From positions 41,972-105,971 of the IMG/VR virus record IMGVR_UViG_3300021962_000047: DNA of 64,000 nt, one strand, 5' to 3'. The stretch is from a virus. Under the pieces are notes generated by a model. It was not told the DNA's origin. It saw only the letters and a program-made list of their open reading frames with translations, and searched no databases. The translations under genes and the position numbers were made by a program. How positions within the stretch are numbered: the stretch's first letter is position 1; each line of letters opens with the position of its first letter. Below are positions 4,574-52,540 of the stretch, one piece after another.

Positions 4574-6331
4574 ATGGAACAAAATAATCTTGTAAATAAT
4601 ATCCCTGAGATTCGTGCTCAACGTATATTGGATGTATACGATGGGTACAATAACTATATTCTGTCCATTAAGAAAAAGTCCGAAACACAAAAACATTTTA
4701 AGATGACTCGGGCTCAAGCCGACTACATTTTAGATTTTCATAAGGATGTTCCAAAGATTGCAAGAAAGTGGGTTCCATTAGATGGATACTTCTCAAAAAG
4801 AATGATGGAAGACAAATTATTAACCAAACAACCCGAACAAATTTATGTTGAGAAGATTTTGGTTGAAAAAGATAAGTCGTACCACATTTATGGGAAATTG
4901 TTTGAAAATGAACAACTACACGACTTTTGGTTACCAAAAGCAGCCATCGTCCCAAATAGAACAAGAAAGGTTGAAATTGATTATGAAAAGTATTCTCATA
5001 GACCTCCGTTATCACACCAAAAAGAAGCAATTGAAAAATTAGTGGGAAGTGATAAGTTTATCCTTGCCGATGATATGGGTCTTGGAAAGACAACATCAAC
5101 CGTAATTGCGGCATTAGAAGCCGGTGCTAAAAAAGTTTTAATCGTATGTCCAGCATCATTAAAGTTAAACTGGCAAAGAGAAATACAAAACTATACAGAC
5201 CGACCAACATTTGTTGTGGAAGGTAAGAAATGGGAACCCGCAGATTTCACAATCATCAACTACGACATCCTTAAGAATTTCCATGAACCAAAAGAGCCAA
5301 AGACATCTGATGTTTTAAATGCAGGATTTGATTTAGTGGTGGTGGATGAAGCTCACTACATTCAAAACAAACAAGCTCAAAGAACAAAGATTGTTAATGA
5401 CATTTGCAAAAAGATTGGAAAGGTTTGGTTATTAACAGGAACCCCAATGACATCACGTCCGATGAACTACTTTAATCTATTGGATTTGGTGGACTCACCA
5501 GTCGCATACAATTGGATGGCATATGTAATGAGATATTGTGAAGGATATCAATTCAGAGTAGGAAATAGAAAAGTGTGGAATGTGACTGGAGCATCCAACT
5601 TAGAAGAATTAAGGGACAGAACAAAACCTCAAGTATTAAGAAGATTAAAAGAAGAGATTTTAGATTTACCTGAAAAAATTATTACACCTGTTTACCTTCA
5701 CCTTAAATCAAAAGATTATGAAGGTTTAATGGGTGAATATTATAATTGGTATGACAATTCAACCGAGTCGTCATCACTAACCGTTCAATTCTCAAAACTG
5801 ATGAAAGTTAGAATGGTAATGGCTCAAGAGAAGGTTAAACACACAATTGAACTTGCAGAAAACATTGTAGAACAAGGAAAGAAAGTTATCATTTTCACCA
5901 ACTTTACCGACACTCTAAACCAAATCAAAGACCATTTTGGAAAGTCGGCAGTGGCTTTAGATGGTAGTATGAGCAAAGTAGCAAGACAAAATTCCGTGGA
6001 CCAATTCCAAGAAAATGACAATATTAAAGTTTTTGTGGGAAACCTTAAAGCCGCAGGTGTTGGTATCACCTTAACCGCAGCCGAAGCCGCCATAATGAAC
6101 GACCTGTCTTTCGTTCCATCAGACCACGCACAAGCAGAAGACAGAGCATATAGATACGGACAAAAATCAAACGTATCTATTTTTTACCCCCTATTCGATA
6201 ACACAATCGAGGGGATTATCTATGATATATTGACTAAAAAGAAACATATTTTCGAAACCGTTATGGGTGACAACGAAGATAAAGGAACCGTGATGGAAGA
6301 AATTTTAAACTCAATATCTCGCTTAAGGTAA
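4574..6331 (+). CDS. SNF2-type superfamily 2 helicase
   Basis: 585 residues with a full set of helicase motifs. Walker A is ADDMGLGKTTST (about 165-176), the DEAH box is VVDEAHYIQN (about 254-263) and motif III is LLTGTPM. The second RecA-like domain ends in the SNF2-type motif VI AEDRAYRYGQ (about 519-528). The compact layout resembles annealing or remodelling helicases of the SMARCAL1/HARP type, and such phage enzymes act in recombination-dependent replication or replication restart, a role like T4 UvsW. The N-terminal 150 residues are unassigned. It is monocistronic, with a host-type promoter upstream and no TATTTAT, which suggests early expression. Confidence 0.92.
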   Translation: MEQNNLVNNIPEIRAQRILDVYDGYNNYILSIKKKSETQKHFKMTRAQADYILDFHKDVPKIARKWVPLDGYFSKRMMEDKLLTKQPEQIYVEKILVEKDKSYHIYGKLFENEQLHDFWLPKAAIVPNRTRKVEIDYEKYSHRPPLSHQKEAIEKLVGSDKFILADDMGLGKTTSTVIAALEAGAKKVLIVCPASLKLNWQREIQNYTDRPTFVVEGKKWEPADFTIINYDILKNFHEPKEPKTSDVLNAGFDLVVVDEAHYIQNKQAQRTKIVNDICKKIGKVWLLTGTPMTSRPMNYFNLLDLVDSPVAYNWMAYVMRYCEGYQFRVGNRKVWNVTGASNLEELRDRTKPQVLRRLKEEILDLPEKIITPVYLHLKSKDYEGLMGEYYNWYDNSTESSSLTVQFSKLMKVRMVMAQEKVKHTIELAENIVEQGKKVIIFTNFTDTLNQIKDHFGKSAVALDGSMSKVARQNSVDQFQENDNIKVFVGNLKAAGVGITLTAAEAAIMNDLSFVPSDHAQAEDRAYRYGQKSNVSIFYPLFDNTIEGIIYDILTKKKHIFETVMGDNEDKGTVMEEILNSISRLR

Positions 6332-6352: not shown

Positions 6353-6359
6353 TATTTAT
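6353..6359 (+). promoter_or_regulatory. TATTTAT motif before SOD-fusion gene
   Basis: Exact TATTTAT 14 bases before the ATG at 6374, directly after the helicase stem-loop. It separates this gene from the helicase as a new transcription unit. Confidence 0.6.
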
Positions 6360-6373
6360 TATAAAAACATACG

Positions 6374-7924
6374 ATGAAATTCAACAAGCATAAAAAGCGA
6401 ATAGAAGAATTGGAATTACAATTAAGTGGACAAACAAAAACAGATAAATTACCACTACCAATTCAAGAACAAAAAACCGAAACTATGAAGAAAGTAAAAA
6501 TCGAAAGATTACCTTACTCTTACTCCGCCTTGTCAAGATTTATTGACCCCGAAACAATGAACGTACACTACAACAAACATTACAAAGGGTATGTAGAAAA
6601 GTTAAACAGGGAGTTAGAAAAATTAAAAGAACAGGATTTAGAATTAGAACAAATCATAAAAGGTATCTCAAGATACAACACAACCGTTAAGAATAATGCG
6701 GGGGGAGCTTACAACCACCAATTATTTTGGAAGATGTTGTCACCAAAACAACAAAGACCATCAGGACCCGTTTACGATAAGATTGTAAAAAAATATGGGG
6801 ACTATGAAAAGTTCAAACAAGAATTTTCAAGAAAGGCAAAAAACAAATTTGGAGCAGGATGGGTATGGTTGGTTCTTACAAAAAATAATGACTTAAAAAT
6901 TATTACCACCGACAATCAGGATAACCCGTTAATGAATACCATTAATTTTGGGGGATATCCTTTGTTAGGATTGGACCTTTGGGAACACGCTTACTACCTC
7001 AAATATAAAAACAGAAGAGACGATTATATCAAAAACTTCTTTAGTGTTATCAACTGGAGTTACGTGAACTACCTATTTGATAACAAAACCAAAAAGAAAA
7101 TTAACGAATCTCGTGATGTGAAAAGTATCATTGAGGAGGGAGCATCGAGAGGTTGTAGTCCCGCTCAGGTAAACACTTATAGAGAAATCTTTAACAAAAA
7201 TTCTGAAATCAAAAAAATCTTCATGTTTGCAATTATGGATATTTTAAAAGAAGTTTTCGCTGATTTTTGGTATGATAAAGGAAAATATGCTGAAGGTGAG
7301 ATGTCAGGTGTTTATGACTATGAAAAGAAAGGTCGTTCTGTGATTAACAAATTAAACACAAACTACACGGCATTTTGTACTTTGGTTAATGATATAAACG
7401 AGGTATTAAAGAAAATGGGTGTTGACCCAATTAATATGATTAACCAATCTCCTGAACAACAAGTTAGAGAAGTAAGAAGGTTAGTCAGATATATGACGGA
7501 ATTCCGTTATAGAATTTTCAATCCAGAATCGGCAACATTTAAAAAGATTATGTCAGGATTGGATACTTCAAATCGTTTTGGTGATGAAAGAGAAATCAAA
7601 GCGGTTGTAAATATGAAAAACATATTTGGAACAAAAGAAGTATTCAAAGTGGGTGACCTTGGGAATGTTGAGGATATGTTAGGTGGGGTTGATGCTACCA
7701 TTACTAAAGATGGTGAAACCAAAACAGCACAAATCAAACCGTTTTCAACATATGAAGAAGGTGAAGATGGTAAAATTACCGTCTTTAACACAGGAAACGT
7801 AAAACCATATAAAACTGATTATTTGGTGTTCCACAACGACAGAAAAGGTACTATTGTGTTTAAAAACGATAATACTGAAATTGTTGGTGGTAATTATGTT
7901 TTCCCAAAAGAAGATATGTTGTAA
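6374..7924 (+). CDS. Fe/Mn superoxide dismutase domain fused to a C-terminal PD-(D/E)XK-like domain
   Basis: 516 residues. Residues about 45-240 match Fe/Mn superoxide dismutase: LPYSYSALSRFIDPETMNVHYNK has the first metal-ligand histidine, GGAYNHQLFW the second, and GLDLWEHAYYLKYKNRR the Asp and last His ligands, followed by a NW-x-YVN segment. The first 40 residues are a charged extension. Residues 250-390 are helical and unrecognised. Residues 400-516 contain GDEREIKAVVN, then GGVDATITKDGE and TAQIKPF, with the spacing of a PD-(D/E)XK nuclease core (helix Glu, D, Q-x-K). The SOD part is well supported; the nuclease-like part is inference. A normal bacterial SOD is about 200 residues, so the fusion is unusual. 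A late-type motif precedes it, so it may be packaged or act late. Confidence 0.85.
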   Translation: MKFNKHKKRIEELELQLSGQTKTDKLPLPIQEQKTETMKKVKIERLPYSYSALSRFIDPETMNVHYNKHYKGYVEKLNRELEKLKEQDLELEQIIKGISRYNTTVKNNAGGAYNHQLFWKMLSPKQQRPSGPVYDKIVKKYGDYEKFKQEFSRKAKNKFGAGWVWLVLTKNNDLKIITTDNQDNPLMNTINFGGYPLLGLDLWEHAYYLKYKNRRDDYIKNFFSVINWSYVNYLFDNKTKKKINESRDVKSIIEEGASRGCSPAQVNTYREIFNKNSEIKKIFMFAIMDILKEVFADFWYDKGKYAEGEMSGVYDYEKKGRSVINKLNTNYTAFCTLVNDINEVLKKMGVDPINMINQSPEQQVREVRRLVRYMTEFRYRIFNPESATFKKIMSGLDTSNRFGDEREIKAVVNMKNIFGTKEVFKVGDLGNVEDMLGGVDATITKDGETKTAQIKPFSTYEEGEDGKITVFNTGNVKPYKTDYLVFHNDRKGTIVFKNDNTEIVGGNYVFPKEDML

Positions 7925-7967: not shown

Positions 7968-9080
7968 ATGGCTATTATCATTGGAACCGAAAGAGAAAAA
8001 CTTTATACGAGAATTCGTCACCTTTTAGGAGCACCTCTTCGTGGTGTTGAGATTGAAGACGAAATGATGGATTCACTATTAGAATTGTCTGTTGAAGATT
8101 ATTCTCAATATGTTGATGACTGGTTGATTGAATCTCAATGGACATCTTTATATGGTATGGACATTGATACCCAATCTTTAACCAGAGCATTCACTACTCG
8201 TTCATTAGATTGGGAAACCCAATACACTTATGCATATTCTAAGATTGTAGGTTTACAAGCCGGTGGTCCTTGGGTTCTTAAAAAAGATTATTTTGATTTG
8301 GTTCCTAACCAACAGATATATGAAATTCCTGCTTGTCGTGAGATTAATGAACTTTTATGGTTCACCAGAGCTGAGTTAGATGCTGCGTTCTTTGACCCAT
8401 TTATGGGTGGTTTTGGAGGATTCGGTGGTGTAGGTTTAGGTGGTGGTGCCGGTTTCTCACAAATGGGAACAACTGGTAGTTACTTCATTACACCAGCATT
8501 TGATATCCTTTTAAGAATGCAAGACATCAATATCAAAAGAAGAATTATCGCTGGTGAACTAACATACCGTATTACAGCATTACCTGAGGGTAAAAAGGCG
8601 GTACATCTTTATAACGTACCTGGAGGTAAATTTGATTTTGGTAATATCGAAAACAATAGTTATCGTGTTTGGTATTGGTATTATGATACCTGTGATAGAG
8701 ATGATTGTTTACAAGCCAATCCTGATGTGGTTAGATTACCATCTGATGTACCAATTTCAGGTTTAAGATGGGATGAGTTAAACTCACCCGCAAAAACTTG
8801 GGTTCGTCGTTGGTTTACCGCATATGTTAAAGAAACTTTAGGTAGAGTTAGAGGAAAATATCAAGGAAACTTGAAAACTCCCGATAGTGAACTACAATTA
8901 GAATATGATTCCTTGTTAACGGAAGCTAAAGATGAAAAATCTAAATTACTTGAAGAATTGATGGCGAGGTTAGAAAGGCTTCGTCCTGATAAGATGATGG
9001 AAAGAGAGGCTAACGTTGCGGAACAATTAAACAAGTCATTGCAATATAGAGCAATGCCTCGTCAAATTTATGTAATTTAA
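7968..9080 (+). CDS. Putative neck protein (gp13-like)
   Basis: 370 residues. The start LLGAPLRGVEIEDEMMDSLLE followed by a VEDYSQYVDDWLIESQW helix is the pattern of gp13-like neck and head-completion proteins, which begin with a short LG-x-P segment, a helical bundle and then a beta domain. A glycine-rich loop follows (GGFGGFGGVGLGGGAG, about residues 147-162). The C-terminal 80 residues form a charged helix (LLEELMARLERLRPDKMMERE). It is monocistronic or paired with the next small gene, and lies far from the gp14- and gp15-like genes on the other strand. The gp13 assignment rests on pattern, not alignment. Confidence 0.5.
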   Translation: MAIIIGTEREKLYTRIRHLLGAPLRGVEIEDEMMDSLLELSVEDYSQYVDDWLIESQWTSLYGMDIDTQSLTRAFTTRSLDWETQYTYAYSKIVGLQAGGPWVLKKDYFDLVPNQQIYEIPACREINELLWFTRAELDAAFFDPFMGGFGGFGGVGLGGGAGFSQMGTTGSYFITPAFDILLRMQDINIKRRIIAGELTYRITALPEGKKAVHLYNVPGGKFDFGNIENNSYRVWYWYYDTCDRDDCLQANPDVVRLPSDVPISGLRWDELNSPAKTWVRRWFTAYVKETLGRVRGKYQGNLKTPDSELQLEYDSLLTEAKDEKSKLLEELMARLERLRPDKMMEREANVAEQLNKSLQYRAMPRQIYVI

Positions 9081-12683: not shown

Positions 12684-15600
12684 TTAAGAACAGTTAGAGT
12701 AGAACGTAATATTGTTAGGTGAACAACTTGTCAAAGTATATTGACTATAGTTAGTTGCTGGAGGGTCTCCAGGGTTAGATGGTGATTGTGCATAAATGTA
12801 GTTACCTTGGACATCTGCTGCGATTTCACTATAGAAAATCGTTAATGAACACGGTGCAGGTGGGTCAACCGCACCGATTTCAACACGAACCACATCACCA
12901 ACACATGCGGATATTGTAGTTGTAGTATTCGAACCACAAGGAACACCAGTTCCAAACGAATAAACCTGAACTCCATTAACTTTAATAACTCCAAGAGTTT
13001 TAATACAACAAGTAGAACCAACAATACAGCCTTGTTTAATATGTTGAACATTTATTGTACAACATTGAGTTGTTTGAGTTGGTGTAACAGTTCTGGTTGG
13101 TGTTGGAGTCCTTGTTGGAGTTCTCGTAACTGTTTGAGTTGCAGTTTTAGTTGGCGTAGGAGTTGCAGTTCTCGTAGGTGTTGCAGTTCTCGTAGGTGTT
13201 GGAGTCGGTGTTGGTGTTGTAATAACACTCGTACATGGGTAAGATTCGGTACATGTAGCACAATCATCATAAGTAATACCACCAAATCCACCTGTAAATA
13301 CAGACCAAGTTATTGGTACATCAAGTATTTTATTTAATGTGTAACAATTATTTGAAATTCCTCCTTGTTCTGAAACATACACAATTAGACCATTATTATT
13401 ACTCACATACTCACAAATACTAGTATCTTGACTACCAAAGTAATATATTTCAAATTCACCTTCGGAACAACAATTGTCCGATAAACTAAAGTAACAATAC
13501 TCAGGACTTGTTGGAGTCGGAGTTAATGTTGGTGTTTGAGTTGGTGTAGGTGTTGGTGTCGGACACGGAGCTACATCATTACAAGCTGAACAATCGACAT
13601 ATAATGTAGTCACTTTATACTCTGCGGGTTCTGGCGTTCCCACTAAGTCATAAATTGTGTAACAAATTCCGTCAATTATAACAACATACCCTTGTAATTC
13701 ACTTCCATATGCCGTTGGAACATCAACAAATTTCACAATTTCAGTTCTTCCATCACAACATTCAATCATTGTTAATTCCCATGTAGTGTATGCAACCGTT
13801 TCGGTTGGGGTATTAGTAGGTGTATTTGTTGCGGTTAATGTAGGTGTAGCTGTTGCGGTCAACGTAGGTGTTGATGTCAACGTAGGTGTGTTTGTCGATG
13901 TTAATGTTGGAGTTGAAGTCCTTGTTGGTGTATTTGTAGCTGTTAATGTTGGAGTATTTGTCGCGGTCAACGTAGGTGTTGCCGTTGCGGTTAGTGTTGG
14001 AGTCGAAGTCCTTGTTGGAGTATTTGTGGCAGTTAACGTAGGAGTTGAAGTCCTTGTTGGTGTATTTGTTGCAGTCAACGTAGGAGTTGAAGTCCTTGTT
14101 GGGGTATTTGTTGCGGTTAATGTTGGAGTATTTGTCGCGGTTAAAGTTGGAGTATTTGTTGCGGTTAAAGTAGGAGTTGAAGTTCTTGTCGGAGTATTTG
14201 TTGCGGTTAAAGTAGGTGTTGAAGTTCTTGTCGGAGTATTTGTCGCGGTTAAAGTAGGTGTTGATGTTAATGTTGGAGTATTTGTTGCAGTCAACGTAGG
14301 TGTTGATGTTAATGTTTGGGTTGGTGTAGGAGTAACTGTTCTTGTTGCCGTTAACGTAGGAGTGTTTGTCGCTGTTAGTGTAGGTGTTGATGTTAATGTT
14401 TGAGTCGGTGTAGGAGTAACTGTTCTCGTTGCAGTTAATGTAGGTGTACTGGTTGATGTAAGTGTTTGTGTTGATGTAACTGTTTGAGTTTGTGTTGGAG
14501 TAACCGTTCTCGTTGCGGTTAATGTTGGAGTACTAGTTGAAGTCAACGTAGGTGTTGAAGTCAATGTAGGTGTGCTGGTAGATGTTTGTGTTGGAGTACT
14601 TGTTAAAGTCGGTGTGTTAGTTGCAGTTAATGTTGGAGTAGATGTTAGTGTCTGAGTATTAGTAGGTGTAACCGTTCTGGTTGATGTTAATGTCGGTGTG
14701 TTAGTTGGTGTTTGAGTTGGCTGTGCAGTCAATGTAGGTGTCGCAGTTGAAGTCAATGTAGGTGTTGAAGTCAACGTAGGTGTACTTGTTGAAGTTAAAG
14801 TTGGAGTATTAGTTGCGGTTAATGTGGGAGTATTTGTTGATGTTAAAGTAGGTGTAGATGTTAATGTTTGAGTTAAAGTTGGCGTTTGTGTTGGAGTAGA
14901 TGTAACTGTTTGTGTCGGTGTCGGAGTTGGACATGTAAATGTAGTACCCGCAACTGCATCACCATCTACATCAGTTACAATATTGATTTGTGTTGGGTCA
15001 CTTATTCTTTGAATATATAGGCTTGGACCTCCGTATAATGAAATTAATTCACTATAAATGTAAGGTGTTAGATTACCATCTGAATATAATGTTTCACCTT
15101 CAATTACAGGGTGGTCATTATCATAAATTACAATAGTTGATGGTGTACCATAACATAAATCATTTAAACTATTTGATATATAATAGTTTTCAGCATTTTG
15201 AATTTGAGTTGGTGTTGGTGTAGATGTTTGAGTGCTCGTAGGGGTTGGAGTATTTGTAGAACTCAATGTCGGAGTAGAAGTTAATGATTGAGTCGGTGTT
15301 GGTGTAACTGTTCTTGTTGAGGTTAATGTAGGAGTATTAGTTGCGGTTAAAGTAGGTGTACTAGTTAAAGTAGGTGTTGAGGTCGAAGTTAAAGTAGGTG
15401 TGTTAGTTGATGTTAATGTTGGCGTATTAGTTGAAGTTAATGTTGGCGTTTGACTCTGAGTTTGTGTATTAGTTGGAGTAACAGTTCTTGTTGATGTCAA
15501 AGTAGGTGTTGACGTACTTGTCAATGTTGGAGTACTGGTCGTTGTTGGCGTTGAAGTGCTCGTCTGAGTTGGAGTATTAGTAAGTGTTTGAGTTGGAGTT

Positions 15601-16469
15601 GCAGTTAATGTTTTAGTGGCTGTTACTGTTTGAGTATTTGTTGGTGTTAAAGTTAAAGTACTTGTTAAAGTAGGTGTTGAAGTACTTGTTAGTGTTGGCG
15701 TTTGAGTTAAAGTAGGAGTTGAAGTACTTGTTAATGTTGGAGTACTTGTTAATGTAGGTGTTGAAGTACTTGTTAGAGTTGGCGTTTGAGTTAAAGTAGG
15801 TGTTGACGTACTTGTCAATGTCGGAGTACTTGTTAGAGTTGGTGTTGACGTACTTGTCAATGTTGGAGTACTCGTTAAGGTTTGAGTATTCGTTGGGGTT
15901 AAAGTGGGTGTTTGAGTTAAAGTAGGTGTTGAAGTACTTGTTAAAGTAGGAGTTGAAGTTAATGTAGGTGTAGATGTACTAGTTAAAGTTGGTGTGCTTG
16001 TTAATGTCGGTGTTGAAGTGCTTGTTAATGTTGGTGTAGATGTACTTGTTTGAGTCGGAGTATTAGTCGGAGTATTAGTAGATGTTAATGTCGGTGTCGA
16101 AGTGCTTGTTAAAGTTGGTGTTGCGGTACTCGTTTGTGTTGGAGTGTTTGACAAAGTCGGAGTACTCGTCAATGTAGGAGTTGACGTACTAGTTTGAGTA
16201 GGAGTATTTGTGAGTGTTTGAGTTAATGTTGGGGTGCTAGTTAATGTTGCAGTTAAAGTTGGTGTTGGTGGAATAATATGAATATATGTTTTATCATAAT
16301 AAGGAACATAAATTTCATAAGTACCTGTAAAATGAGGCGCAATATAATTAAAAGGCATTGTAAGCGTACCTAAATCAGATGGGTCACCACCTTCATCAGA
16401 CAAATACGTAACCTGAACTGTAAAACCACTTAGGTTTTCACTTAAAAATCTAATACCTTCTCCCGCCAT
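12684..16469 (-). CDS. Thr/Pro-repeat adhesin-like protein with cysteine-rich modules (1261 aa)
   Basis: 1261 residues, no signal peptide. An N-terminal beta domain (1-70) opens it. A Thr/Pro/Ser repeat stretch (units such as [14 protein letters not shown]) runs from about residue 73 to 425. A globular module follows (about 428-510: [27 protein letters not shown]), then a second long repeat to about residue 900. After that come two CC-x(n)-DC-x2-C modules joined by short Pro/Thr linkers and a cysteine-rich C-terminal domain ([13 protein letters not shown] onward). Two modules resemble modules of the next two upstream genes. Such stiff Thr/Pro stalks with knobs suggest a tail fibre or adhesin, which is inference. 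The stalks would be natural O-glycosylation targets. Confidence 0.75.
13785..16266 (-). repeat. Coding tandem repeat region encoding Thr/Pro stalks
   Basis: Nearly all of this stretch except 14932-15205 (a globular module) is made of variable 18-24-base units encoding T-[SA]-[TN]-T-P-T-L and similar. Codon changes between copies show long coding constraint. There are no spacers. The repeats are long and similar enough to allow copy-number change by recombination or slippage. Confidence 0.85.
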
Positions 16470-16482
16470 TTTTTATTTTATA

Positions 16483-16489
16483 ATAAATA
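16483..16489 (-). promoter_or_regulatory. TATTTAT motif before 1261-aa adhesin gene
   Basis: Exact TATTTAT on the minus strand, 13 bases before the ATG, with an A-rich leader (TATTATAAAATAAAAA). Confidence 0.6.
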
Positions 16490-16531
16490 TTACCTAATCT
16501 TATAATCCCATTTTATTTTTTAGTAATTTCT

Positions 16532-19500
16532 TTATATACAATAGAACCATTTATTATTTAAGTAGTTGTGTGTTACAGATAATTCTGAAGGTGTCAATAC
16601 TCTATTCCACAATAATACCTCATATATAAATCCACCGTAGTAATATCTGAATGATGATGTCCCTGTTCTATCAACACCAATATATAGTGTATCTATGGAT
16701 GCATTTGTTGATGTACCAACATTTGATAAGAATGTTAATGATTCCTGAACTCCGTCAATATAGAATTTAAGCTTGTCAGCATTTGTAGATTGTGTACCAT
16801 CAAATACCATAGTCCACATATGTGGGTTTAAATCGGCGATTTGGGATGTCTGAGCTAAACCATTTGCAGCTCCTACAACAAATGTACCACCACTTAATCT
16901 TAAGTTAGAATTGTTAGTGGATACGTTACCGATACCAGATGTGATAAATTGTTGTGTGGTACCAGTATTTACCAATTTACCTAAAACAATTGCAGTAAAC
17001 CCTGTGATAGCCGCAATAGATGTTAATGGGTTAACACTCAAGCCATCAGATGTCCCATCAAATTTAACAGCACTTAATCCACACTGTACATTGGTCCACC
17101 ACGCAGGTCTGGTTGTGGCACCTCCGATTGGGTTGGCATTATGTGCACTTGCAGATGAGTCATACCATTGAGTAAAGGTATCACCACTCACAGGTGTTGG
17201 GTTAAAGTTAGTATCTAAACTTGCGTCATAATAAATTTGTAGAGTTGGGTCTGACGGTACAACCGCCTGTGTTGCGGTTAATGTTAAAGTTGGTGTTGGT
17301 GTAAGTGTTTGAGTAATAGTAACCGTTTGTGTTAAAGTAGGTGTTGGAGTTGGAGTTAATCCGCCAAGTGTTTGTGTTGGTGGCAATGGTGTAGAAGTTA
17401 TATCATTAGTCGGAGCCGGCGTAAATGTTAATGTTTGAGTTGGTGTTAAAGTTGGAGTTGAAGTACTTGTTAATGTCGGAGAACTTGTTAAAGTTGGGGT
17501 TGAAGTACTTGTTAATGTCGGAGAACTTGTTAAAGTTGGGGTTGAAGTACTTGTTAATGTTGGTGTAGGTGTCGGTGTAGTCACAATAAATGGACTAAAA
17601 TCTACAATAACCGGACACTCACATTCTGAGGTATCCACACTAATCACACCAAATGATTGAACACATTCACCAGGTTGTAATACACCACTTAAATTAAATG
17701 TATGTACGTGGTCATTAAATGACATAGTTTCTGAACCATAGAACACAGTTCCCATATCACCACGAGCAACACCTGAAATAACATAATCACATAGAGCATT
17801 GGCATTACTTGTAAATCCACTATCGTTATATAACTTTATTGAGAAGTTAGAACATCCTCCTAATTCAACCTGAAGATATTGTGTAGTTACCGGACAACTT
17901 GGAGTATTAGTTAACGTTGGTGTATTTGTTAAGGTTGGTGTACTGGTTGAAGTTAAAGTAGGTGTTGAAGTTAAAGTAGGTGTTGACGTACTAGTTAAAG
18001 TCGGAGTAGAAGTTAAAGTAGGTGTTGATGTGCTCGTTAGTGTTGGTGTCTGAGTTAAAGTAGGTGTTGAAGTACTTGTTAATGTAGGAGTGTTAGTTAA
18101 TGTAGGTGTATTGGTTGATGTTAAAGTAGGTGTTGACGTACTAGTTAAAGTAGGTGTAGACGTACTTGTTAGTGTCGGCGTTTGAGTTAATGTCGGAGTA
18201 TTTGTAGGTGTTGGTGTAGGAGTTGGACAAATTTGGTCCACACCACAAACCGATTCACCATCAACATTATTAACTATATTAATTGTTGAACCACCAACCT
18301 TCTTAATGTAGAACGGAGTTCCACCAGCAATACTCTCTAAATCAACATACGGATATGGTGTTAATAAACTATCTTGATATAATGTTTCACCCTCAATAAC
18401 GGGATGGTCATTATCATAAATTAAAATAGTTGGATTTTCTCCATAACATAACGAATCTAAACTATCTGAAATATAATAGAAATCAGCATTTTGTACTTCA
18501 GTCGGTGTAGGTGTTGATGTTAATGTTGGCGTGTTCGTTGCAGTCAACGTCGGAGTTTGGGTCAACGTAGGAGTTGAAGTACTTGTTAAGGTTGGTGTAC
18601 TTGTAAGTGTTGGAGTATTAGTTGACGTTAATGTCGGAGTTTGAGTCAACGTTGGTGTCGAAGTACTTGTTAATGTCGGAGTTTGAGTCAGAGTCGGAGT
18701 TGAAGTACTTGTTAAAGTTGGGGTACTTGTTAATGTCGGTGTATTAGTTGAAGTTAAAGTCGGAGTACTTGTCAACGTAGGAGTTGATGTACTTGTCAAT
18801 GTTGGAGTTTGTGTTAAAGTAGGTGTAGAAGTACTTGTCAACGTAGGAGTACTTGTCAGTGTTGGTGTGTTAGTTGAAGTTAATGTAGGAGTACTGGTTA
18901 GGGTTGGGGTATTAGTTGCGGTTAAAGTAGGGCTACTTGTTAGGGTAGGCGTGGGTGTACTTGTTAAGGTAGGACTCGGTGTAGGTGTTTGAGTTGGTAT
19001 ATTAAAGATATACCTGAAAGTATAAACATAATTGTAAATTGTACTACCTGAATTAACGATACTAACATTACTAATACCACTGGTGTAATTCAATAAAGAA
19101 TAATTTGTGGTTGCACTTAATTGAGTCCCACCTGATAATGAACCCGCACCGAGTTCGATTGTAGGTTCAAACACCAATGACGAACCATTTTGTAATCCAA
19201 GAGTATTGTTAAAATTAATAACAACTGTATTATCTACAGTTCCATCCATGGTTGCCGAATATGATGCAAATACAGAACCCGCGGTGTATGTTCCAACAAT
19301 ATCAATAGTTCTAGTATTGATTAATGTTGGAGTTGGTGTTGGCGTTCTTCTTGGAGTTTCTGTTGGTCTAACAAAAGGAGTTACACCTTTATTTGGTCTA
19401 CAACACGTATCACTATCTGCGAACGATTCAATTATATTAACATATAATACATTCCTAACAGGAACAATATATTCACCTCTTTCATTAACAATTTTAAATT

Positions 19501-19762
19501 CACCAATGTATCTACCAACTTTAGATGATGTTTTTTTGTTGAATTGATAATAAACAGAATAACCTGAACCATCTTCATTGATAGTTACACCCGCAGGAAC
19601 ATTAGCTAATCTATAAATTCCTGTATCAACATCTTTAAGTGAGAATGTAACTGTAGACGCTGACAAATATTGGTCGAGCTGATGATACCCATTTCTCGAT
19701 TCATTTATTACCTCAACCATCAATTTAGGTAATGTACTATTCTGTCTTATAAAAAACTCCAT
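16532..19762 (-). CDS. Thr/Pro-repeat adhesin-like protein with attachment and lectin-like domains (1076 aa)
   Basis: 1076 residues. Residues 1-115 are the same domain as 12290-12643. A beta domain follows (about 150-260), then a Thr/Pro stalk with a YYISDSLDSLCYG / [14 protein letters not shown] module (about 428-510) also present in the 1261-aa protein. A second stalk leads to a domain opening CPVTTQYLQVELGGC. The C-terminal 230 residues resemble a LamG/concanavalin-type lectin fold: LQIYYDASL, VKFDGTSDGLSV, MWTMVFDGTQ, KFYIDGVQE and a YGGFIYEVLLWNRVLTPSE ending. LamG-like domains in phage fibres bind sugars, so this protein is the best candidate in the locus for surface-glycan recognition. 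No TATTTAT motif precedes it; it is likely co-transcribed with 19776-22562. Confidence 0.75.
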   Translation of the reverse strand: MEFFIRQNSTLPKLMVEVINESRNGYHQLDQYLSASTVTFSLKDVDTGIYRLANVPAGVTINEDGSGYSVYYQFNKKTSSKVGRYIGEFKIVNERGEYIVPVRNVLYVNIIESFADSDTCCRPNKGVTPFVRPTETPRRTPTPTPTLINTRTIDIVGTYTAGSVFASYSATMDGTVDNTVVINFNNTLGLQNGSSLVFEPTIELGAGSLSGGTQLSATTNYSLLNYTSGISNVSIVNSGSTIYNYVYTFRYIFNIPTQTPTPSPTLTSTPTPTLTSSPTLTATNTPTLTSTPTLTSTNTPTLTSTPTLTSTSTPTLTQTPTLTSTSTPTLTSTPTLTSTNTPTLTSTPTLTSTSTPTLTQTPTLTSTSTPTLTQTPTLTSTNTPTLTSTPTLTSTSTPTLTQTPTLTATNTPTLTSTPTPTEVQNADFYYISDSLDSLCYGENPTILIYDNDHPVIEGETLYQDSLLTPYPYVDLESIAGGTPFYIKKVGGSTINIVNNVDGESVCGVDQICPTPTPTPTNTPTLTQTPTLTSTSTPTLTSTSTPTLTSTNTPTLTNTPTLTSTSTPTLTQTPTLTSTSTPTLTSTPTLTSTSTPTLTSTPTLTSTSTPTLTNTPTLTNTPSCPVTTQYLQVELGGCSNFSIKLYNDSGFTSNANALCDYVISGVARGDMGTVFYGSETMSFNDHVHTFNLSGVLQPGECVQSFGVISVDTSECECPVIVDFSPFIVTTPTPTPTLTSTSTPTLTSSPTLTSTSTPTLTSSPTLTSTSTPTLTPTQTLTFTPAPTNDITSTPLPPTQTLGGLTPTPTPTLTQTVTITQTLTPTPTLTLTATQAVVPSDPTLQIYYDASLDTNFNPTPVSGDTFTQWYDSSASAHNANPIGGATTRPAWWTNVQCGLSAVKFDGTSDGLSVNPLTSIAAITGFTAIVLGKLVNTGTTQQFITSGIGNVSTNNSNLRLSGGTFVVGAANGLAQTSQIADLNPHMWTMVFDGTQSTNADKLKFYIDGVQESLTFLSNVGTSTNASIDTLYIGVDRTGTSSFRYYYGGFIYEVLLWNRVLTPSELSVTHNYLNNKWFYCI
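17240..19010 (-). repeat. Coding Thr/Pro tandem repeats in 1076-aa adhesin
   Basis: Repeat blocks at about 17270-17580, 17898-18225 and 18500-19010 encode units [20 protein letters not shown] and TQTPTL. They are interrupted by the globular modules of the protein. Some neighbouring copies are almost identical at DNA level, for example the copies of TTGAAGTACTTGTTAATGTC around 17460-17560. Confidence 0.8.
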
Positions 19763-19775
19763 CTACTTACTATAA

Positions 19776-22562
19776 TTATAAACAAGGGTTATCATTTATA
19801 CAATCAGCACAATCTGTATATACTGGTGAATCAATATAAAGTACATTACTACCAGGTGATATAGGACCAATTGGTCCAAAAAGTACCGTTATATAATAAC
19901 ACTTACCTTCATATTGGATTATATCACCAACATTCAATATTGACGTACTATTAATTGAATCTAGTAATGAGTCACCATCATCACAACAACTTAATGCCGT
20001 CATATCTCCATACCCATAAACACATTCATTTTCCGATGTACATTCAACACACGTTTCATAAACGTTAATTACAGTTAAACCTAATGGAGGTCCAATTGCT
20101 GGTGTTGGAAGAGTAATAATCTCAAAACATTGGACAAACCCATCATGTTCTATAGTAACAATATCACCAAGATTTAAAGTTGTAAGGGAACTAATAATCT
20201 CAATAGGTTCTTCCCATCCATCTATACAACACGATTTTAATGTTCCAACCTCATAATTGTAATATACCGGTTGTGAAAGTGTTGGTGTAGGTACTGGTGG
20301 TGTATATGTTGGTGTTGGCACCGGAGGTGTCTGTGTCGGAACTAACGGTGTTGACGTAACATCATTTGTCGGTTGAGGTGTAAATGACAATGTAGGTGTC
20401 ATCGTAGCCGTCAACGTAGGTGTCATTGTCAACGTCGGTGTTTGAGTTTGAGTTGGATATAAGATTACATTAACATCAACCTCACAATTTTCATCCGTTA
20501 CATTAAAGTTGAAATCACAATTTGCATCAATAATATTAAATCCAAAATCACATTCGATATCATTAATTGCATAATCAAATCTACAAGTGACTGTATCAAC
20601 ATTGAAGTCGAAATAACATTGTGACAATATCTCCAAACAGTTTGGACACCAATAATCGAATAAATTAAATCGGTCCTTCAATACCCTGAAGTTGTGTTGG
20701 ATTTGAGATGAATCCAATGGTTCAACATACATTCTGAATTGAGATATACCCCCCATAAAGGTTCCACCAAAATTTTGTTCCATCAAAATATCGGTTGTCA
20801 ATCCAGATAATGAGGTACCTGACAAAGTATTGTTCGGCATCAATTCAGGGTCCTGAATATATGGACCATAACGGTCTTCACAATTTTGGAAGATTAAACT
20901 CTCACGAAGACCTTGAGTACCACCACCCCATGAAATGTTAAACGGAACTCCGATTTGTTTTTCACGTTGGGTGTTTAACTCACGAGGAATAATTTCTTCA
21001 AAATCTTCGATAACCATAAACAGGTAACCGTTAACATATAAACGAAGAACACCTCTTCTATCTTCAACTTGTCTTAACCATTTTCTGTTAAGTTCAATAA
21101 CTTCTTCAGGTAATTCTTTTTTACCACCCTCGTGTGTTTGAGGGGGTTGAATAAGGTTTACCGTGGCACCATAGGTTTCAGAAGAATATACGTATTCGCG
21201 TATGTCTCCCAATCCCCCTTTATTTAATAGGTCACATCCGTCGTACCACCTATATCGGTCAAAGACAGCTGTTAACATTACCCATCTTTCTTTTGTTCTT
21301 TCGGCTTCAGAAACAGGATAACCACAAACATCATAGATACCACGAGATGAACATATCTCATTAATTGTATATCCCGAACAATATGTCAACCCAGTTGTTT
21401 CACATGTTCCCGTTGTGACGCAATCACCCGTTAACTTAATGTATTTAACACATAATCGTGGGTTTTTAGGGTCACCACTCAAACGAATAGACATTGCATT
21501 TGAGAATACATCCATCGCTGGGTCAACAGGTGGTTCAGGAACCTCTGTATTGTATGAACAAAACGGACCAATATTGTGTTGAACAGTTGTTGCGGTTTGA
21601 GGGTAAACCAACAAACAATGAGATAATGTATTTGCGGTGTCGGCACATCCGCATGTTTTAATACAATCAGTTAAACCTGATGTAACTCTTTGGTATTCCC
21701 ATTGTGTTCCACCCGACGTATCAAAATCAAAATCACATTTGAAATTCTCAGGAGTTTGAGTTAAACCAGAGGCTGGATGATAAAATTTATTTTCAGCACG
21801 AGTACCAAAGAAAAAGAATGTTCCCGCATTTTCAGGGTAAACTGTGTTTAGATATGTCTGGTGTTGTTCACGGATATGGTATTCATCTACCTGACGTGGT
21901 TTGATAACCGTCTCCATTGTCCACCCCTTATTAACCCTTTCAGGGAAAACTTCATAATCGTAACCATGTAATTTGTAGAAACCCTGAAAAAATCCACCAT
22001 ATAATTCTTGGTAATAACCAACTTGGCTATCCTCCTTACTCATTATATTATAAATGGTTTCTTTTGGGTTACCTGAAAATCTAACATTTGGGGGGTTGGT
22101 GTAATCATACACCTGTCTCATCTTAAATCTTCGGTCGTAATAATGGGGGTTATAAGTCATAAACTCATCAATACCCATCGTATAATATAGTGTTTGACCT
22201 GTCATGTATTGATACATTCCTGTATCAATCATTGTGAGACCCGCATCACATAATCCAGTATATCCTTTATAACAATTTAAATCTTCATTGTTTGGATTAT
22301 AATAGTTTTTAGATGTGGCAGTATTTCCTGAATTAAAATTACCCCAATAAAGATAATCTTTTGGGTTTGACGCAGCGGAATTTAAGTCAATATTGATTGG
22401 TAAAATGTTACCATTCGTTTCGGCAATTAGATAATTTGAAAATACTACTTCCTCGTCGTAATTTTTTTCATCCGACGCTAAAGTTAAGTCAAAGTATTCA
22501 CTATTATCTAACTTTATATCAAATCTATTAAAGTTAAAATTGTTAATGTTTTGAGTTGCCAT
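19776..22562 (-). CDS. Large virion structural protein with C-terminal cysteine modules (928 aa)
   Basis: 928 residues. Residues 1-650 are a novel, cysteine-containing, aromatic-rich domain; a segment near residue 510-530 (GVLRLYVNGYLFMVIEDF) and NFGGTFMGGISQFRMYVEPLD near 620 suggest a LamG-like sheet, as in other phage fibre proteins. Residues about 648-700 carry a short tandem 11-residue repeat beginning with Cys. A Thr/Pro linker follows, then two CC-x(n)-C-x2-C-x4-C modules similar to those of the 1261-aa protein. It starts the minus-strand adhesin unit and has a TATTTAT motif. It is probably the base or largest member of the fibre; no family is recognised. Confidence 0.7.
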   Translation of the reverse strand: MATQNINNFNFNRFDIKLDNSEYFDLTLASDEKNYDEEVVFSNYLIAETNGNILPINIDLNSAASNPKDYLYWGNFNSGNTATSKNYYNPNNEDLNCYKGYTGLCDAGLTMIDTGMYQYMTGQTLYYTMGIDEFMTYNPHYYDRRFKMRQVYDYTNPPNVRFSGNPKETIYNIMSKEDSQVGYYQELYGGFFQGFYKLHGYDYEVFPERVNKGWTMETVIKPRQVDEYHIREQHQTYLNTVYPENAGTFFFFGTRAENKFYHPASGLTQTPENFKCDFDFDTSGGTQWEYQRVTSGLTDCIKTCGCADTANTLSHCLLVYPQTATTVQHNIGPFCSYNTEVPEPPVDPAMDVFSNAMSIRLSGDPKNPRLCVKYIKLTGDCVTTGTCETTGLTYCSGYTINEICSSRGIYDVCGYPVSEAERTKERWVMLTAVFDRYRWYDGCDLLNKGGLGDIREYVYSSETYGATVNLIQPPQTHEGGKKELPEEVIELNRKWLRQVEDRRGVLRLYVNGYLFMVIEDFEEIIPRELNTQREKQIGVPFNISWGGGTQGLRESLIFQNCEDRYGPYIQDPELMPNNTLSGTSLSGLTTDILMEQNFGGTFMGGISQFRMYVEPLDSSQIQHNFRVLKDRFNLFDYWCPNCLEILSQCYFDFNVDTVTCRFDYAINDIECDFGFNIIDANCDFNFNVTDENCEVDVNVILYPTQTQTPTLTMTPTLTATMTPTLSFTPQPTNDVTSTPLVPTQTPPVPTPTYTPPVPTPTLSQPVYYNYEVGTLKSCCIDGWEEPIEIISSLTTLNLGDIVTIEHDGFVQCFEIITLPTPAIGPPLGLTVINVYETCVECTSENECVYGYGDMTALSCCDDGDSLLDSINSTSILNVGDIIQYEGKCYYITVLFGPIGPISPGSNVLYIDSPVYTDCADCINDNPCL

Positions 22563-42854: not shown

Positions 42855-43099
42855 AAACGATAACCATAACTGAAGAAATGATTGAACAAATCATTCGTAG
42901 AGTAATCCACGAAAAGAAAAAGAGTAAGAAGAAGAAAGACACTACTCTTTGTGCTAGAGGTAAGTCGGCGGCTAAAGCTAAATTTGATGTATATCCATCA
43001 GCATATGCTAATGGTTATGCTGTTCAGGTTTGTAAAGGTTCAATGCCGGGTTTGGATGGGAAGAAAAGATGTTCAGGAAAATATTGTTCAGGTAAATAA
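42851..43099 (+). CDS. Small basic Cys-rich protein with AKAKFDVYPSAYANGY motif
   Basis: 82 residues. A helix at the start (EEMIEQIIRRVIHEKKK), a lysine patch, and then LCARGKSAAKAKFDVYPSAYA followed by GYAVQVCKG and RCSGKYCSGK: five Cys in all, perhaps a zinc site. This small Cys/Lys motif is common in large marine phages (a DUF5872-like type, recalled from family knowledge), role unknown. It resembles tags in the 22611 and 43879 genes. It overlaps the 503-residue gene as ATGA. Confidence 0.7.
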   Translation: MKTITITEEMIEQIIRRVIHEKKKSKKKKDTTLCARGKSAAKAKFDVYPSAYANGYAVQVCKGSMPGLDGKKRCSGKYCSGK

Positions 43100-47073: not shown

Positions 47074-47107
47074 ACTTGAATTTTTTATATCTTTTCTTAT
47101 ATATATT

Positions 47108-47114
47108 ATAAATA
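47108..47114 (-). promoter_or_regulatory. TATTTAT motif before multidomain gene
   Basis: Exact TATTTAT on the minus strand, 34 bases before the ATG at 47073. It also lies in the 49-base divergent gap to the plus-strand 47123 gene. Confidence 0.55.
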
Positions 47115-47122
47115 TCAAATAA

Positions 47123-48345: not shown

Positions 48346-50175
48346 TTATCTTAATTCTCTCAAGTCGAATGTTCTAACACCATCAACTGTGATTCTACCA
48401 TAGAAACGGTTGTTAACCATTTTCTTAGCGTATCTTGTCATGATACCCTTGATAGGTGTGAAGTTGAATGGGTTGTACATAGTTGGAGTCAACTGAAGAG
48501 GTACATATGGTGCGTAAACGTAACCTGTGTCTAACAAAGATGAACCTTTGTGACCCAACAATACTTGGTTTGCTGGGAAGTAAGGGTCACGATATACTTG
48601 ATATCTACCTGCTAATGTACCAACTCTCTCGATACCCATGTTGTACTGGTCCTGCTCAGGAGATGCATTTGAAACGTGGAAGTACTCCAAGTCATCAAAG
48701 ATAGCAGAAACTTCTGAAGAAACAACAATCCAGTTAGCTCCACCTCTCAACGTAGATTTGTGAATCTGTGCTGATAATTGGTTGATAGCTGTGATTAATG
48801 TTTGGTTCCAGTCTTTCTGAGTGTATTGAGTTAATGGATTAGCTGCAGTTCCTCTCTTCCATCCGTTGTAGTCCCAACGTAAGTTCCAAGCCGCACCTTT
48901 TCTCAAGTCTCTTAAGATTTCACGGTCGATTTCAGCAGCCACTTGCTCAGACAATAAAGCTGTTAATTCAGCTTCAGCGTCGATGTTGTGGAATGCAGAA
49001 ACGTCTTGTGCCAATTCAGGAGACCATTGTGCTCTTAATTTTCTTTCTGTTACAGAAACAGTAACTGACTCAAGGTCGAAAGAAACTTCACCGATTTCAT
49101 CTTCGAATTCCAAGTTCTTGTAAACTCTATATGTTGCAGTGAATTGAGTGTTAGCAACAGTTGTACCGTCAACAGCTGTAGTTAAACCTGAGTATCCGTC
49201 GATAGAATTTGGACCGATAGTACATGGTACTTGTAAGTCAACTTCTAAGTAGATAACACCGTCAGCGTCACAAAGTTGTTGGAATGAACCACTGTTACCT
49301 CTATCAGCACCTGAGTAGAAATCAGTTTGTGTTTGGTTACCGTATTGTACAATACCCTTACCATACTTCTGTGTTACAACTCTAAATAACAAGTTACCTG
49401 AACCTGCTCCTGAGAATGCTCCTGAAGCGTTTGCGTTGATTGTCAAGTCAGACAAGAATGATTCGTTATCCATTTCGTTACCGTCAGGACCGATGATTTT
49501 ACCAGCTCCTGCAGGTGCGAAACCTTCCATAGCAAGAATTACCTTTCTCCAAGGACCATCAGCCGCTAAGTAAGCAGTTGGTACTAATTCATTGTTTGAA
49601 TTCCAGTTTACAGTAACTACCTGAGTAATTGGTGCAGTAACTGCTGACCACTGACCTTTAGAGTAGTCAAATAACCCTGGAGGGTCTAATGCTGCTTCGT
49701 TACCTTCGTAGAACAAGTCATACAAGTTCTTTTGGTATGCGTTAGCATTTGGTGGATAACCTGCTCCTTGTGCAGCTGGACCGTTTGGTGCTCCCAATGG
49801 TGCGTAGTGCGTGTTAGGATTTGGTGCAGTGTTATCGTAACCCTGAATTCTAGGTACGAAGTAGAATAATTTACCGATAGGTAAGTTCATAGCTTGTACA
49901 GACACGATGTCGTTAGCTAATAATTTAGAGAATACTCTTCTCACGATAGGGAAAACTACAGTTTCAAATGAACCTGAACTGTCTGAAGACGATGCTTCAT
50001 TGATTAAGTGAGATGCTTGGTTTTCATATAACTGTGCAATGTTCTCTCTTAAGTGACCTTTCAAACCCTCTAAGAATCCTAATTTGTCCCATTTGTTGAT
50101 TGTGTCTTCTTTGATAACTTTCAAGTGCTTCATGCCGATGTTACCAACTAGACCGCTTTCTAATAATGCTCCCAT
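48346..50175 (-). CDS. Major capsid protein, gp23-like
   Basis: 609 residues. The N-terminus (LKVIKEDTINKWDKLGFLEGL, then helices to about residue 65 with ASHLINEASSSDSSGSF) is the removable delta domain of gp23-type capsid proteins. The body has VFPIVRRVFSKLLANDIVSVQ, PIGKLFYFVPR, and C-terminal DTGYVYAPYVPLQLTPT, YNPFNFTPIKGIMTRYAKKM, all close to T4-like capsid proteins. It is larger than T4 gp23 (521). It forms the capsid shell, is cleaved by the gp21-like protease coded upstream, and is the last gene of its operon. Confidence 0.95.
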   Translation of the reverse strand: MGALLESGLVGNIGMKHLKVIKEDTINKWDKLGFLEGLKGHLRENIAQLYENQASHLINEASSSDSSGSFETVVFPIVRRVFSKLLANDIVSVQAMNLPIGKLFYFVPRIQGYDNTAPNPNTHYAPLGAPNGPAAQGAGYPPNANAYQKNLYDLFYEGNEAALDPPGLFDYSKGQWSAVTAPITQVVTVNWNSNNELVPTAYLAADGPWRKVILAMEGFAPAGAGKIIGPDGNEMDNESFLSDLTINANASGAFSGAGSGNLLFRVVTQKYGKGIVQYGNQTQTDFYSGADRGNSGSFQQLCDADGVIYLEVDLQVPCTIGPNSIDGYSGLTTAVDGTTVANTQFTATYRVYKNLEFEDEIGEVSFDLESVTVSVTERKLRAQWSPELAQDVSAFHNIDAEAELTALLSEQVAAEIDREILRDLRKGAAWNLRWDYNGWKRGTAANPLTQYTQKDWNQTLITAINQLSAQIHKSTLRGGANWIVVSSEVSAIFDDLEYFHVSNASPEQDQYNMGIERVGTLAGRYQVYRDPYFPANQVLLGHKGSSLLDTGYVYAPYVPLQLTPTMYNPFNFTPIKGIMTRYAKKMVNNRFYGRITVDGVRTFDLRELR

Positions 50176-51817: not shown

Positions 51818-52540
51818 TTAATAACCTAAATAATCGGAAAGTCTTTTCATTAAGTCAAGTGATTTGTTGTTAGAACCTCCACTAATAGGGTTAGAAAGTT
51901 TCATATTTCTTTCTTCTTCTAAATTTTCGTCATACTGACTTCTATCATCTTTGTTTAAAAACAAGTACGCTCCTGGTGTTGATGGTGATGATACTAAGTC
52001 AAAACAAATCAATTCAAAATCATCTTGTACTTCATTTTGTTCACCCTTTTTAGCTAATGAACCAACACCACGAGAAGATACACCCATAGTAACACCTTGT
52101 CTCATTAAATTAGCTGCAATATCACCAGGTGAAGATACAATACCTCTTTCGTGGAATCCAGGTGTTGTTAATAGTTTAATCTTACCCATTAAAACATTAC
52201 CTTCCCACCATACATCAGTAATTAAGTGCGATACTCTTTCTAAATCTATTAAAGAAGATTCAGGGTGATTTAATTCTGAAATTGATAAACCTTTTTCGAT
52301 TGCCTTCTTATAATTTTCAGCTTCTCTTTTTAATATTCTTTCAGGGTATACTCTACCATTTCTATTTGGTACACCATATTTTTGTAAAACGGCATAAAAT
52401 ACAAATGGTTTAGAATGTTCTAATTGACCATATGATTCTCTTATTACTTGAGCGTTTCTTTCTTCAGTTGGTGATACGAAACCCGCATCCCACTCAACTA
52501 ATATTCCTTTTCCTGTATCGCTAGGACCTAATACTTTCAT
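51818..52540 (-). CDS. Prohead protease, gp21-like
   Basis: 240 residues. KYGVPNRNGRVYPERILKRE, then LSISELNHPESS (His, about 92), VSHLITDVWWEGN, MGKIKLLTTPG, and GVTMGVSSRGVGS (Ser, about 153) match the gp21 family of herpes-protease-like serine enzymes. It cuts scaffold and capsid proteins during head maturation. Length is near T4 gp21 (212). It lies before the scaffold gene, in the canonical order. A late motif precedes it. Confidence 0.93.
   Translation of the reverse strand: MKVLGPSDTGKGILVEWDAGFVSPTEERNAQVIRESYGQLEHSKPFVFYAVLQKYGVPNRNGRVYPERILKREAENYKKAIEKGLSISELNHPESSLIDLERVSHLITDVWWEGNVLMGKIKLLTTPGFHERGIVSSPGDIAANLMRQGVTMGVSSRGVGSLAKKGEQNEVQDDFELICFDLVSSPSTPGAYLFLNKDDRSQYDENLEEERNMKLSNPISGGSNNKSLDLMKRLSDYLGY

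What the first reader, a model, noticed from the sequence alone, without database searches (positions are those of the whole stretch)
6374..7924. Superoxide dismutase fused to a probable PD-(D/E)XK-like domain
The N-terminal half keeps all four Fe/Mn SOD metal ligands. The C-terminal 115 residues have the Glu-helix, GVDATI and QIK spacing of PD-(D/E)XK nucleases. I know of no SOD-nuclease fusion in phages. A late-type motif precedes it, so it could protect phage DNA from oxidative damage and act on DNA in the same place, or be packaged.
Basis: partly seen in the sequence, partly recalled or inferred. Interest (0 to 1): 0.75.

Follow-up and report, generated by a model that had tools for sequence, protein, structure and literature searches.

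The report
Phage superoxide dismutase–nuclease fusion cassette
A large, uncultivated family of T4-like phages carries one gene that joins an antioxidant enzyme (superoxide dismutase) to a DNA-cutting-enzyme fold through a short floppy linker. The linker carries motifs like the one where the phage's own head-maturation protease cuts its capsid protein, which hints that both enzymes are made as one precursor and packed into the virus head.

Summary
ORF 6374-7924 encodes an Fe/Mn superoxide dismutase (SOD; residues 39-232, four metal ligands intact) fused to a C-terminal domain. That domain's AlphaFold model (pLDDT 92) best matches PD-(D/E)XK enzymes (I-Ssp6803I, archaeal Hjc), and E407, D440, Q453 and K455 are invariant in the family alignment. 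The fusion is not a one-off: hundreds of viral contigs encode the nuclease part, no match was found in bacterial or archaeal genomes, and 77 of the 80 best relatives carry it fused to SOD. In the loci examined the gene sits between an SNF2-type helicase and a neck gene. Relatives fill that slot with SOD alone, Zn-protease-like domain-SOD, the nuclease alone, or all three module types. It is disordered, yet 46 of 46 non-redundant fusions carry [LIVFM]xE[AGS] there (76 sites, 8 expected), while the SOD body is depleted. The phage's major capsid protein has LINE|A where T4 gp23 is cut by its prohead protease, and the linker sites (INE|S, L(S/T)E|G) match it. Best reading: a late, head-targeted precursor that the prohead protease cuts into free SOD and free nuclease, packaged like T4 internal proteins. 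The fusion and folds are supported; cutting, packaging and activity are inferred.

The parts
6353..6359 (+). TATTTAT promoter-like element shared with head and tail genes
   Evidence: 15 of 55 upstream regions hold it, 1.1 expected
6374..7924 (+). 516-aa SOD-nuclease fusion gene
6374..6487 (+). leader, residues 1-38: short amphipathic helix then disordered stretch; leader helix kept in SOD-only, nuclease-only and Zn-protease-like-SOD relatives
   Evidence: helix 3-17, residues 14-39 pLDDT < 50; leaders compared
6488..7069 (+). Fe/Mn superoxide dismutase domain, residues 39-232; ligands H65, H115, D201, H205; Q182 and G199 as in Mn-preferring enzymes
7070..7153 (+). interdomain linker, residues 233-260, disordered at 240-258
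   Evidence: pLDDT < 50 at 240-258; motif enrichment 76 vs 8.2 expected
7100..7111 (+). candidate prohead-protease site 1, INE|S (E245 in 46 of 46)
   Evidence: matches capsid-protein site LINE|A
7130..7141 (+). candidate prohead-protease site 2, IEE|G, family consensus (L/I)(L/I)(S/T/N)E|G (position 253 I/L in 46 of 46, E255 in 44 of 46)
7154..7513 (+). helical middle domain (MID), residues 261-380, starts at invariant C261
7514..7921 (+). PD-(D/E)XK-fold domain, residues 381-516; E407 (7592-7594), D440 (7691-7693), Q453 (7730-7732), K455 (7736-7738)
4574..6331 (+). SNF2-type helicase, conserved upstream neighbour
7968..9080 (+). neck protein (head-tail adaptor Ad2 type), conserved downstream neighbour
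   Evidence: phrog_211 E 4e-10
49993..50007 (-). LINE|A site in the major capsid protein, aligned with the T4 gp23 cleavage site LTE|A
   Evidence: 81 of 81 LINE, 80 of 81 A; profile alignment to T4 gp23 E 9e-7
51818..52540 (-). prohead (head maturation) protease, T4 gp21 type
   Evidence: phrog_207 E 1.7e-44

Best explanation
The gene makes a late-expressed precursor with three parts: a short leader helix, a manganese-type SOD, and a helical-plus-PD-(D/E)XK nuclease module. The leader targets the precursor to the prohead, as the propeptides of T4 internal proteins do. The phage's gp21-type prohead protease then cuts the disordered linker after E245 and E255, freeing SOD and nuclease inside the head, to be injected with the DNA or to protect it. 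The genomic slot is a cassette: related phages put different modules behind the same kind of leader. Shown by computation: the fusion, both folds, conserved active-site residues, disordered linker, conserved protease-type motifs, conserved neighbourhood, structural-gene promoter motif, module swapping. Inferred: cleavage, packaging, injection, enzymatic activity and the benefit to the phage.
For: SOD and nuclease folds and residues. Linker disorder (240-258, pLDDT < 50). [LIVFM]xE[AGS] in the linker: 76 sites vs 8.2 expected in shuffles, present in 46 of 46 nr90 fusions (7.7 expected), but 3 vs 19.3 in the SOD body and 18 vs 32.9 in the nuclease module; E245 46 of 46 and E255 44 of 46 in otherwise variable sequence. 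Specificity estimated independently: capsid protein LINE|A in 81 sequences, aligned with T4 gp23 LTE|A; the phage has a gp21-type protease. T4 head proteins carry the same motif (gp24 LRE|S, gp67 LIE|A and FAE|A, gp22 IAE|A). In this genome only six places have two such sites within 14 residues; besides this linker they include the predicted scaffold protein (50203-51459) and a likely core protein (59571-60257). Nuclease-only relatives are leader + LxLSE|S + module, the T4 internal-protein layout. Promoter motif shared with head/tail genes. T4 internal proteins are packaged via cleaved N-terminal propeptides and even carry foreign enzymes into the host (PMC9026906).
Against: No virion proteomics or cleavage data for any member. 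The leader (about 30-45 aa) is longer than T4 propeptides (10-19 aa) and does not resemble them in sequence. The leader site just before SOD is weaker: next residue M or I rather than A/G/S, and absent in 29 of 110 fusions, including this window. The [LIVFM]xE[AGS] motif is short and only slightly enriched in the whole proteome (123 vs 103). Zn-protease-like-SOD forms have the protease-like domain in front of the leader.
Confidence: 0.5

Rival explanations
1. The intact fusion works in the infected cell, not in the virion: a late DNA-processing nuclease (for example a branch or Holliday-junction resolvase working with the neighbouring helicase during packaging) with SOD tethered to it to keep DNA and enzyme free of superoxide damage.
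For: Closest solved folds include Hjc resolvases; SNF2-type helicase is the constant neighbour; no Endonuclease VII or RuvC found in the 106-kb record.
Against: The nuclease module is missing in 37 of 79 neck-anchored relatives that do have SOD, odd for an essential resolvase; tethering does not explain conserved protease-type motifs in the linker; the record may be incomplete, so the missing resolvases mean little.
Confidence: 0.22
2. Packaged as in the best explanation, but the PD-(D/E)XK module is a DNA-binding or inactive fold, and the useful cargo is SOD alone.
For: The motif is QxK rather than (D/E)xK; SOD is kept without the nuclease in many relatives.
Against: E407, D440, Q453 and K455 are invariant in 46 of 46 sequences down to 28% identity, and a distant second domain keeps the same E / GxD / QxK pattern; nuclease-only relatives exist.
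Confidence: 0.12
3. The SOD-fold domain is a structural part of the head-tail neck, with no enzymatic role.
For: The gene lies directly before the neck gene and shares its promoter motif.
Against: Metal ligands and second-sphere residues are conserved in 145 distinct SOD domains; SOD is absent in nuclease-only relatives and one relative has no such gene.
Confidence: 0.05
4. The linker glutamates are conserved for another reason (for example an interaction motif), and the fusion is an ordinary metabolic SOD gene that picked up a neighbour by gene fusion.
For: The motif is short; SOD genes occur in other large phages.
Against: Both the position and the residue choice mirror the capsid-protein site; leaders are kept in all module combinations.
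Confidence: 0.11

Closest known systems
Fe/Mn superoxide dismutase (SodFM family), e.g. Clostridioides difficile SOD 3tjt, Sphingobacterium MnSOD 6gsc
   Same: Full-length domain, about 40-46% identity, all ligands, Q182 (Q-Cterm) and G199 (X-D-2) as in mostly Mn-preferring members (PMC10172142)
   Different: Fused to leader and nuclease module; those relatives are stand-alone bacterial enzymes
PD-(D/E)XK nucleases I-Ssp6803I (2ost) and archaeal Hjc resolvases (4tkd, 2wcw)
   Same: Core fold and order helix-E, strand-D, strand-QxK
   Different: Weak match (E 2.7e-3, TM-score on target about 0.4), no detectable sequence similarity, extra helical MID domain, no Pfam family
T4 internal head proteins (IPI-IPIII, Alt) with capsid targeting sequence
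   Same: N-terminal leader, LxE|(A/S/G)-type sites, phage with gp21-type protease, variable cargo
   Different: No sequence homology seen; longer leader; internal sites between two enzymes; virion presence not shown
UniProt A0A6J5L953, 'superoxide dismutase [uncultured Caudovirales phage]', 501 aa
   Same: It holds the nuclease module (Foldseek E 1.5e-27, 37% identity) and is named SOD, so the same fusion was already deposited
   Different: Named only as SOD; nuclease part and linker not reflected in the name
Stand-alone phage SODs (Pseudomonas phages PA5oct, MIJ3; Vibrio phage 2.275.O) and virion-borne SOD of giant viruses
   Same: Virus-encoded SOD; SOD can be virion cargo in giant viruses (PMC9405923)
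   Different: No match to the nuclease module; 24-27% identity or an unrelated SOD class

Membership tests
Fe/Mn superoxide dismutase | Two-domain Sod_Fe_N + Sod_Fe_C sequence profile | tested here: met
   E 1.8e-22 and 1.4e-37
Fe/Mn superoxide dismutase | Metal ligands His, His, Asp, His | tested here: met
   H65, H115, D201, H205 invariant
Fe/Mn superoxide dismutase | SOD fold | tested here: met
   TM-score 0.90 on 6gsc
Fe/Mn superoxide dismutase | Superoxide dismutation, metal content | not testable with these tools
   needs purified protein
PD-(D/E)XK nuclease superfamily | Alpha-beta core with E on helix A, D on strand 2, (D/E/Q)xK on strand 3 | tested here: met
   E407 in helix 387-418, D440 at start of strand, Q453/K455 in strand 448-456
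PD-(D/E)XK nuclease superfamily | Structural match to solved members | tested here: met
   the top ten PDB hits are I-Ssp6803I and Hjc-type resolvases; E-values weak (best 2.7e-3)
PD-(D/E)XK nuclease superfamily | Sequence profile match to a named family | tested here: not met
   none; not required for a superfamily defined by fold
PD-(D/E)XK nuclease superfamily | Metal-dependent DNA cleavage | not testable with these tools
   needs assay
T4-type head-internal (capsid-targeted) protein | Prohead-protease sites (L/I)xE|(A/G/S) at processing points | tested here: met
   motif in linker; reference site from capsid protein; cleavage itself untested
T4-type head-internal (capsid-targeted) protein | Short (10-19 aa) N-terminal propeptide ending at a protease site | tested here: inconclusive
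   leader about 38 aa with a weak site before SOD; nuclease-only relatives have a 15-32 aa leader ending in a hydrophobic-x-E site
T4-type head-internal (capsid-targeted) protein | Late expression | tested here: inconclusive
   promoter-like motif shared with structural genes; no expression data
T4-type head-internal (capsid-targeted) protein | Present in the virion and injected | not testable with these tools
   no proteomics
Holliday-junction resolvase (Hjc) | Cleaves four-way junctions as a dimer | not testable with these tools
   fold resemblance only

The most novel reading that the evidence does not exclude
A large group of T4-like environmental phages uses one genomic slot to build head-packaged polyproteins from interchangeable enzymes (superoxide dismutase, PD-(D/E)XK nuclease, a Zn-protease-like domain). 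The capsid-maturation protease cuts them apart in the head, and they enter the host with the DNA: a phage delivery system for a pre-made antioxidant and nuclease.
Probability: 0.42. Interest if true: 0.82.

Novelty: new variant of a known kind. Interest (0 to 1): 0.62.

Why it matters
SOD in phage genomes is usually filed as an auxiliary metabolic gene. If this one is a head-packaged precursor, it is instead a delivered effector. The same precursor would carry a nuclease, and prohead-protease sites would be used to release two enzymes from one chain. The module swapping in a fixed slot gives a way to find other packaged enzymes in uncultivated phages by motif and position, and it makes a concrete prediction (new N-termini at S246 and G256) that one mass-spectrometry run on a relative could settle. 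The nuclease module is also a sequence family absent from Pfam and found here only in phages.

Tried and rejected
Assembly chimera or chance ORF: rejected, same fusion in hundreds of contigs. C-terminal part as a known Pfam/PHROG/PADLOC family: no credible hit; weak PHROG hits (phrog_5018, E 0.003-0.04) are unannotated. Sequence search of the PDB with the nuclease profile: nothing credible. Bacterial or archaeal homologues of the nuclease module: none in two scans of 84,980 species genomes (pattern-seeded, so very distant homologues could be missed). Named phages: no match to the nuclease module. T4 head-completion protein gp4 was considered as a relative but not tested. Resolvase role supported by absence of other resolvases: looked for Endonuclease VII and RuvC, neither found, but the record may be incomplete. 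Literature: no report of an SOD-nuclease fusion or of SOD in Far-T4 phages found (the library lacks most subscription journals). L088 and L091, where the gene is split into two ORFs, look like frame breaks (L088 at a run of A) and were not used as evidence for separate genes. The same contigs recur under several queries, so counts are of contigs, not of independent events.

Full report
OBSERVATION. The ORF 6374-7924 (+) is 516 aa long. Residues 43-232 match both Fe/Mn SOD Pfam profiles, with solved bacterial SODs as relatives up to E 2.7e-58. The AlphaFold model of the whole protein (30-sequence alignment, mean pLDDT 81.7) gives an SOD domain that superposes on 6gsc with a TM-score of 0.90. 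The metal ligands H65, H115, D201 and H205, and the second-sphere residues Q182 and G199, are kept across 145 distinct phage SOD domains (G199 in 138). In PMC10172142 Gln at this position and Gly or Ala two residues before the Asp ligand go with Mn preference, so Mn is the likely metal.

The C-terminal part has no Pfam match. A second model of residues 259-516 with 46 sequences has pLDDT 92.1 and pTM 0.83. Its best PDB matches are the PD-(D/E)XK homing endonuclease I-Ssp6803I (Foldseek probability 1.00, E 2.7e-3) and archaeal Holliday-junction resolvases. E407 lies in the long helix, D440 at the start of the next strand, and Q453/K455 in the following strand: the canonical arrangement. All four are invariant in 46 sequences down to 28% identity. 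The E-values are modest, as usual for this fold, and nuclease activity is untested.

DISTRIBUTION. A scan with the SOD part brought 236 viral relatives, of which the best 80 were kept. 67 of these have SOD, middle and nuclease regions in one ORF; 3 are cut by the contig end, 2 are split, and 8 carry other architectures. A scan with the nuclease module brought 460 relatives; of the 80 kept, 77 are fused to SOD and 3 are not. Nothing was found in 84,980 bacterial and archaeal species genomes nor in 50,697 named phage records. BFVD holds A0A6J5L953, 'superoxide dismutase [uncultured Caudovirales phage]', 501 aa, which contains the nuclease module. The fusion was therefore already deposited, named only as SOD. 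A 1,113-aa marine phage protein, A0A8D9CCA0, holds the module in another context.

ONE SLOT, MANY MODULES. The order is SNF2-type helicase, this gene, neck gene (phrog_211), a ~110-aa protein, then DNA polymerase on the other strand; upstream lie gp14/gp15/sheath-like genes on the other strand (the gp14, gp15, sheath and polymerase names are my reading). Anchoring on the neck gene gave 79 loci: 38 SOD-nuclease, 20 Zn-protease-like-SOD, 17 SOD alone, 3 nuclease without SOD, 1 empty. In another clade the gene is 714 aa: an N-terminal HExxH domain (LAHEWVHEHQ), SOD, and a second, diverged domain that aligns with this nuclease family at E 7.5e-6 and keeps E / GxD / QxK-PF. SOD-only and nuclease-only forms keep the leader helix. 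These counts are of the contigs that resemble this one most, not an unbiased census.

THE LINKER. AlphaFold leaves residues 14-39 and 240-258 without confident structure. In 46 non-redundant fusions (90% identity cut) the stretch from the end of SOD to C261 contains [LIVFM]xE[AGS] 76 times against 8.2 expected from shuffling the same residues, and every sequence has at least one. The SOD body has 3 against 19.3, the nuclease module 18 against 32.9. E245 is conserved 46/46, position 253 is I or L 46/46, E255 44/46, while neighbours vary. The consensus is K(L/I)NE|S and (L/I)(L/I)(S/T/N)E|G.

Why this points to the prohead protease: the phage has a gp21-type head maturation protease (phrog_207, E 1.7e-44). 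Its capsid protein carries LINE|A in all 81 sequences examined (A in 80). A profile alignment puts that site opposite T4 gp23 LTE|A, the gp21 site, at E 9e-7 (that T4 gp23 is cut at E65 is my own knowledge, and the T4 record fetched notes that gp23 is cleaved by gp21). T4 gp24, gp67 and gp22 show the same motif. Cleavage after a glutamate within a short motif is general for these proteases (PMC9026906, PMC5694885). T4 packs internal proteins by such cleaved propeptides, and foreign enzymes fused to them are delivered into cells. Nuclease-only relatives have this layout: a 15- to 32-residue leader ending in L-x-L-S-E|S or L-L-T-E, then the module. The gene also has the TATTTAT element of the head and tail genes.

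MECHANISM. I therefore favour: late synthesis, leader-driven incorporation in the prohead, cutting after E245 and E255, and free SOD and nuclease in the mature head. From there they could protect packaged DNA from oxidative damage in water, or be injected, SOD to quench superoxide in the dying host and the nuclease to attack host or rival DNA or to process the incoming genome. None of these last steps is shown. What weakens the model: the leader does not resemble T4 propeptides, the site before SOD is weak, the motif is short and only slightly enriched proteome-wide, and there is no proteomic evidence.

RIVALS. An intact cytoplasmic SOD-resolvase is the main rival: Hjc-like fold, helicase neighbour, no Endonuclease VII or RuvC in this possibly incomplete record. 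But the module is dispensable in many relatives and the linker conservation stays unexplained.

VERDICT. The fusion is real, widespread in phages, and both folds are well supported. The architecture and the linker are new to me and I found no report of them, but each piece works like known things, so I rate it a new variant of a known kind.

Noticed in passing
L056:2747-4091 (-), L074:4718-5086, L168:2693-3542 (-), window 42851-43099: Many small genes in these phages begin with a short leader such as MKDLIKKILKEET (three tandem paralogues in L056), MRKTIRLTEADLSRLIRRIIKE, MKVVITEN or MKTITITEE, which recalls T4 internal-protein propeptides; they may mark a whole set of head-packaged proteins.
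   Followed up: no
window 43879-47118 (-): A 1079-aa protein with M23 peptidase and peptidoglycan-binding domains plus further C-terminal domains, joined by linkers with LIKE|S-like motifs: another candidate multi-enzyme precursor.
   Followed up: partly
window, 15 of 55 upstream regions: TATTTAT element before head, tail and scaffold genes, 15 seen vs 1.1 expected; probably the late promoter of this phage.
   Followed up: partly
window 12684-22562 (-): Three large proteins, two built mainly of long Thr/Pro/Ser repeats ([14 protein letters not shown]), likely tail or fibre proteins.
   Followed up: no
window 47463-48293: A 276-aa class II tRNA-synthetase-like protein (tRNA-synt_2, E 8e-14) next to the capsid genes, apparently only the catalytic core.
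   Followed up: no
L077:5524-7665, L074:5518-6609: HExxH (Zn-protease-like) domain fused in front of SOD; no confident Pfam match.
   Followed up: partly
L270:3895-4974: The second, diverged nuclease-like domain as a stand-alone 360-aa gene directly after a nuclease-only form of this gene.
   Followed up: no
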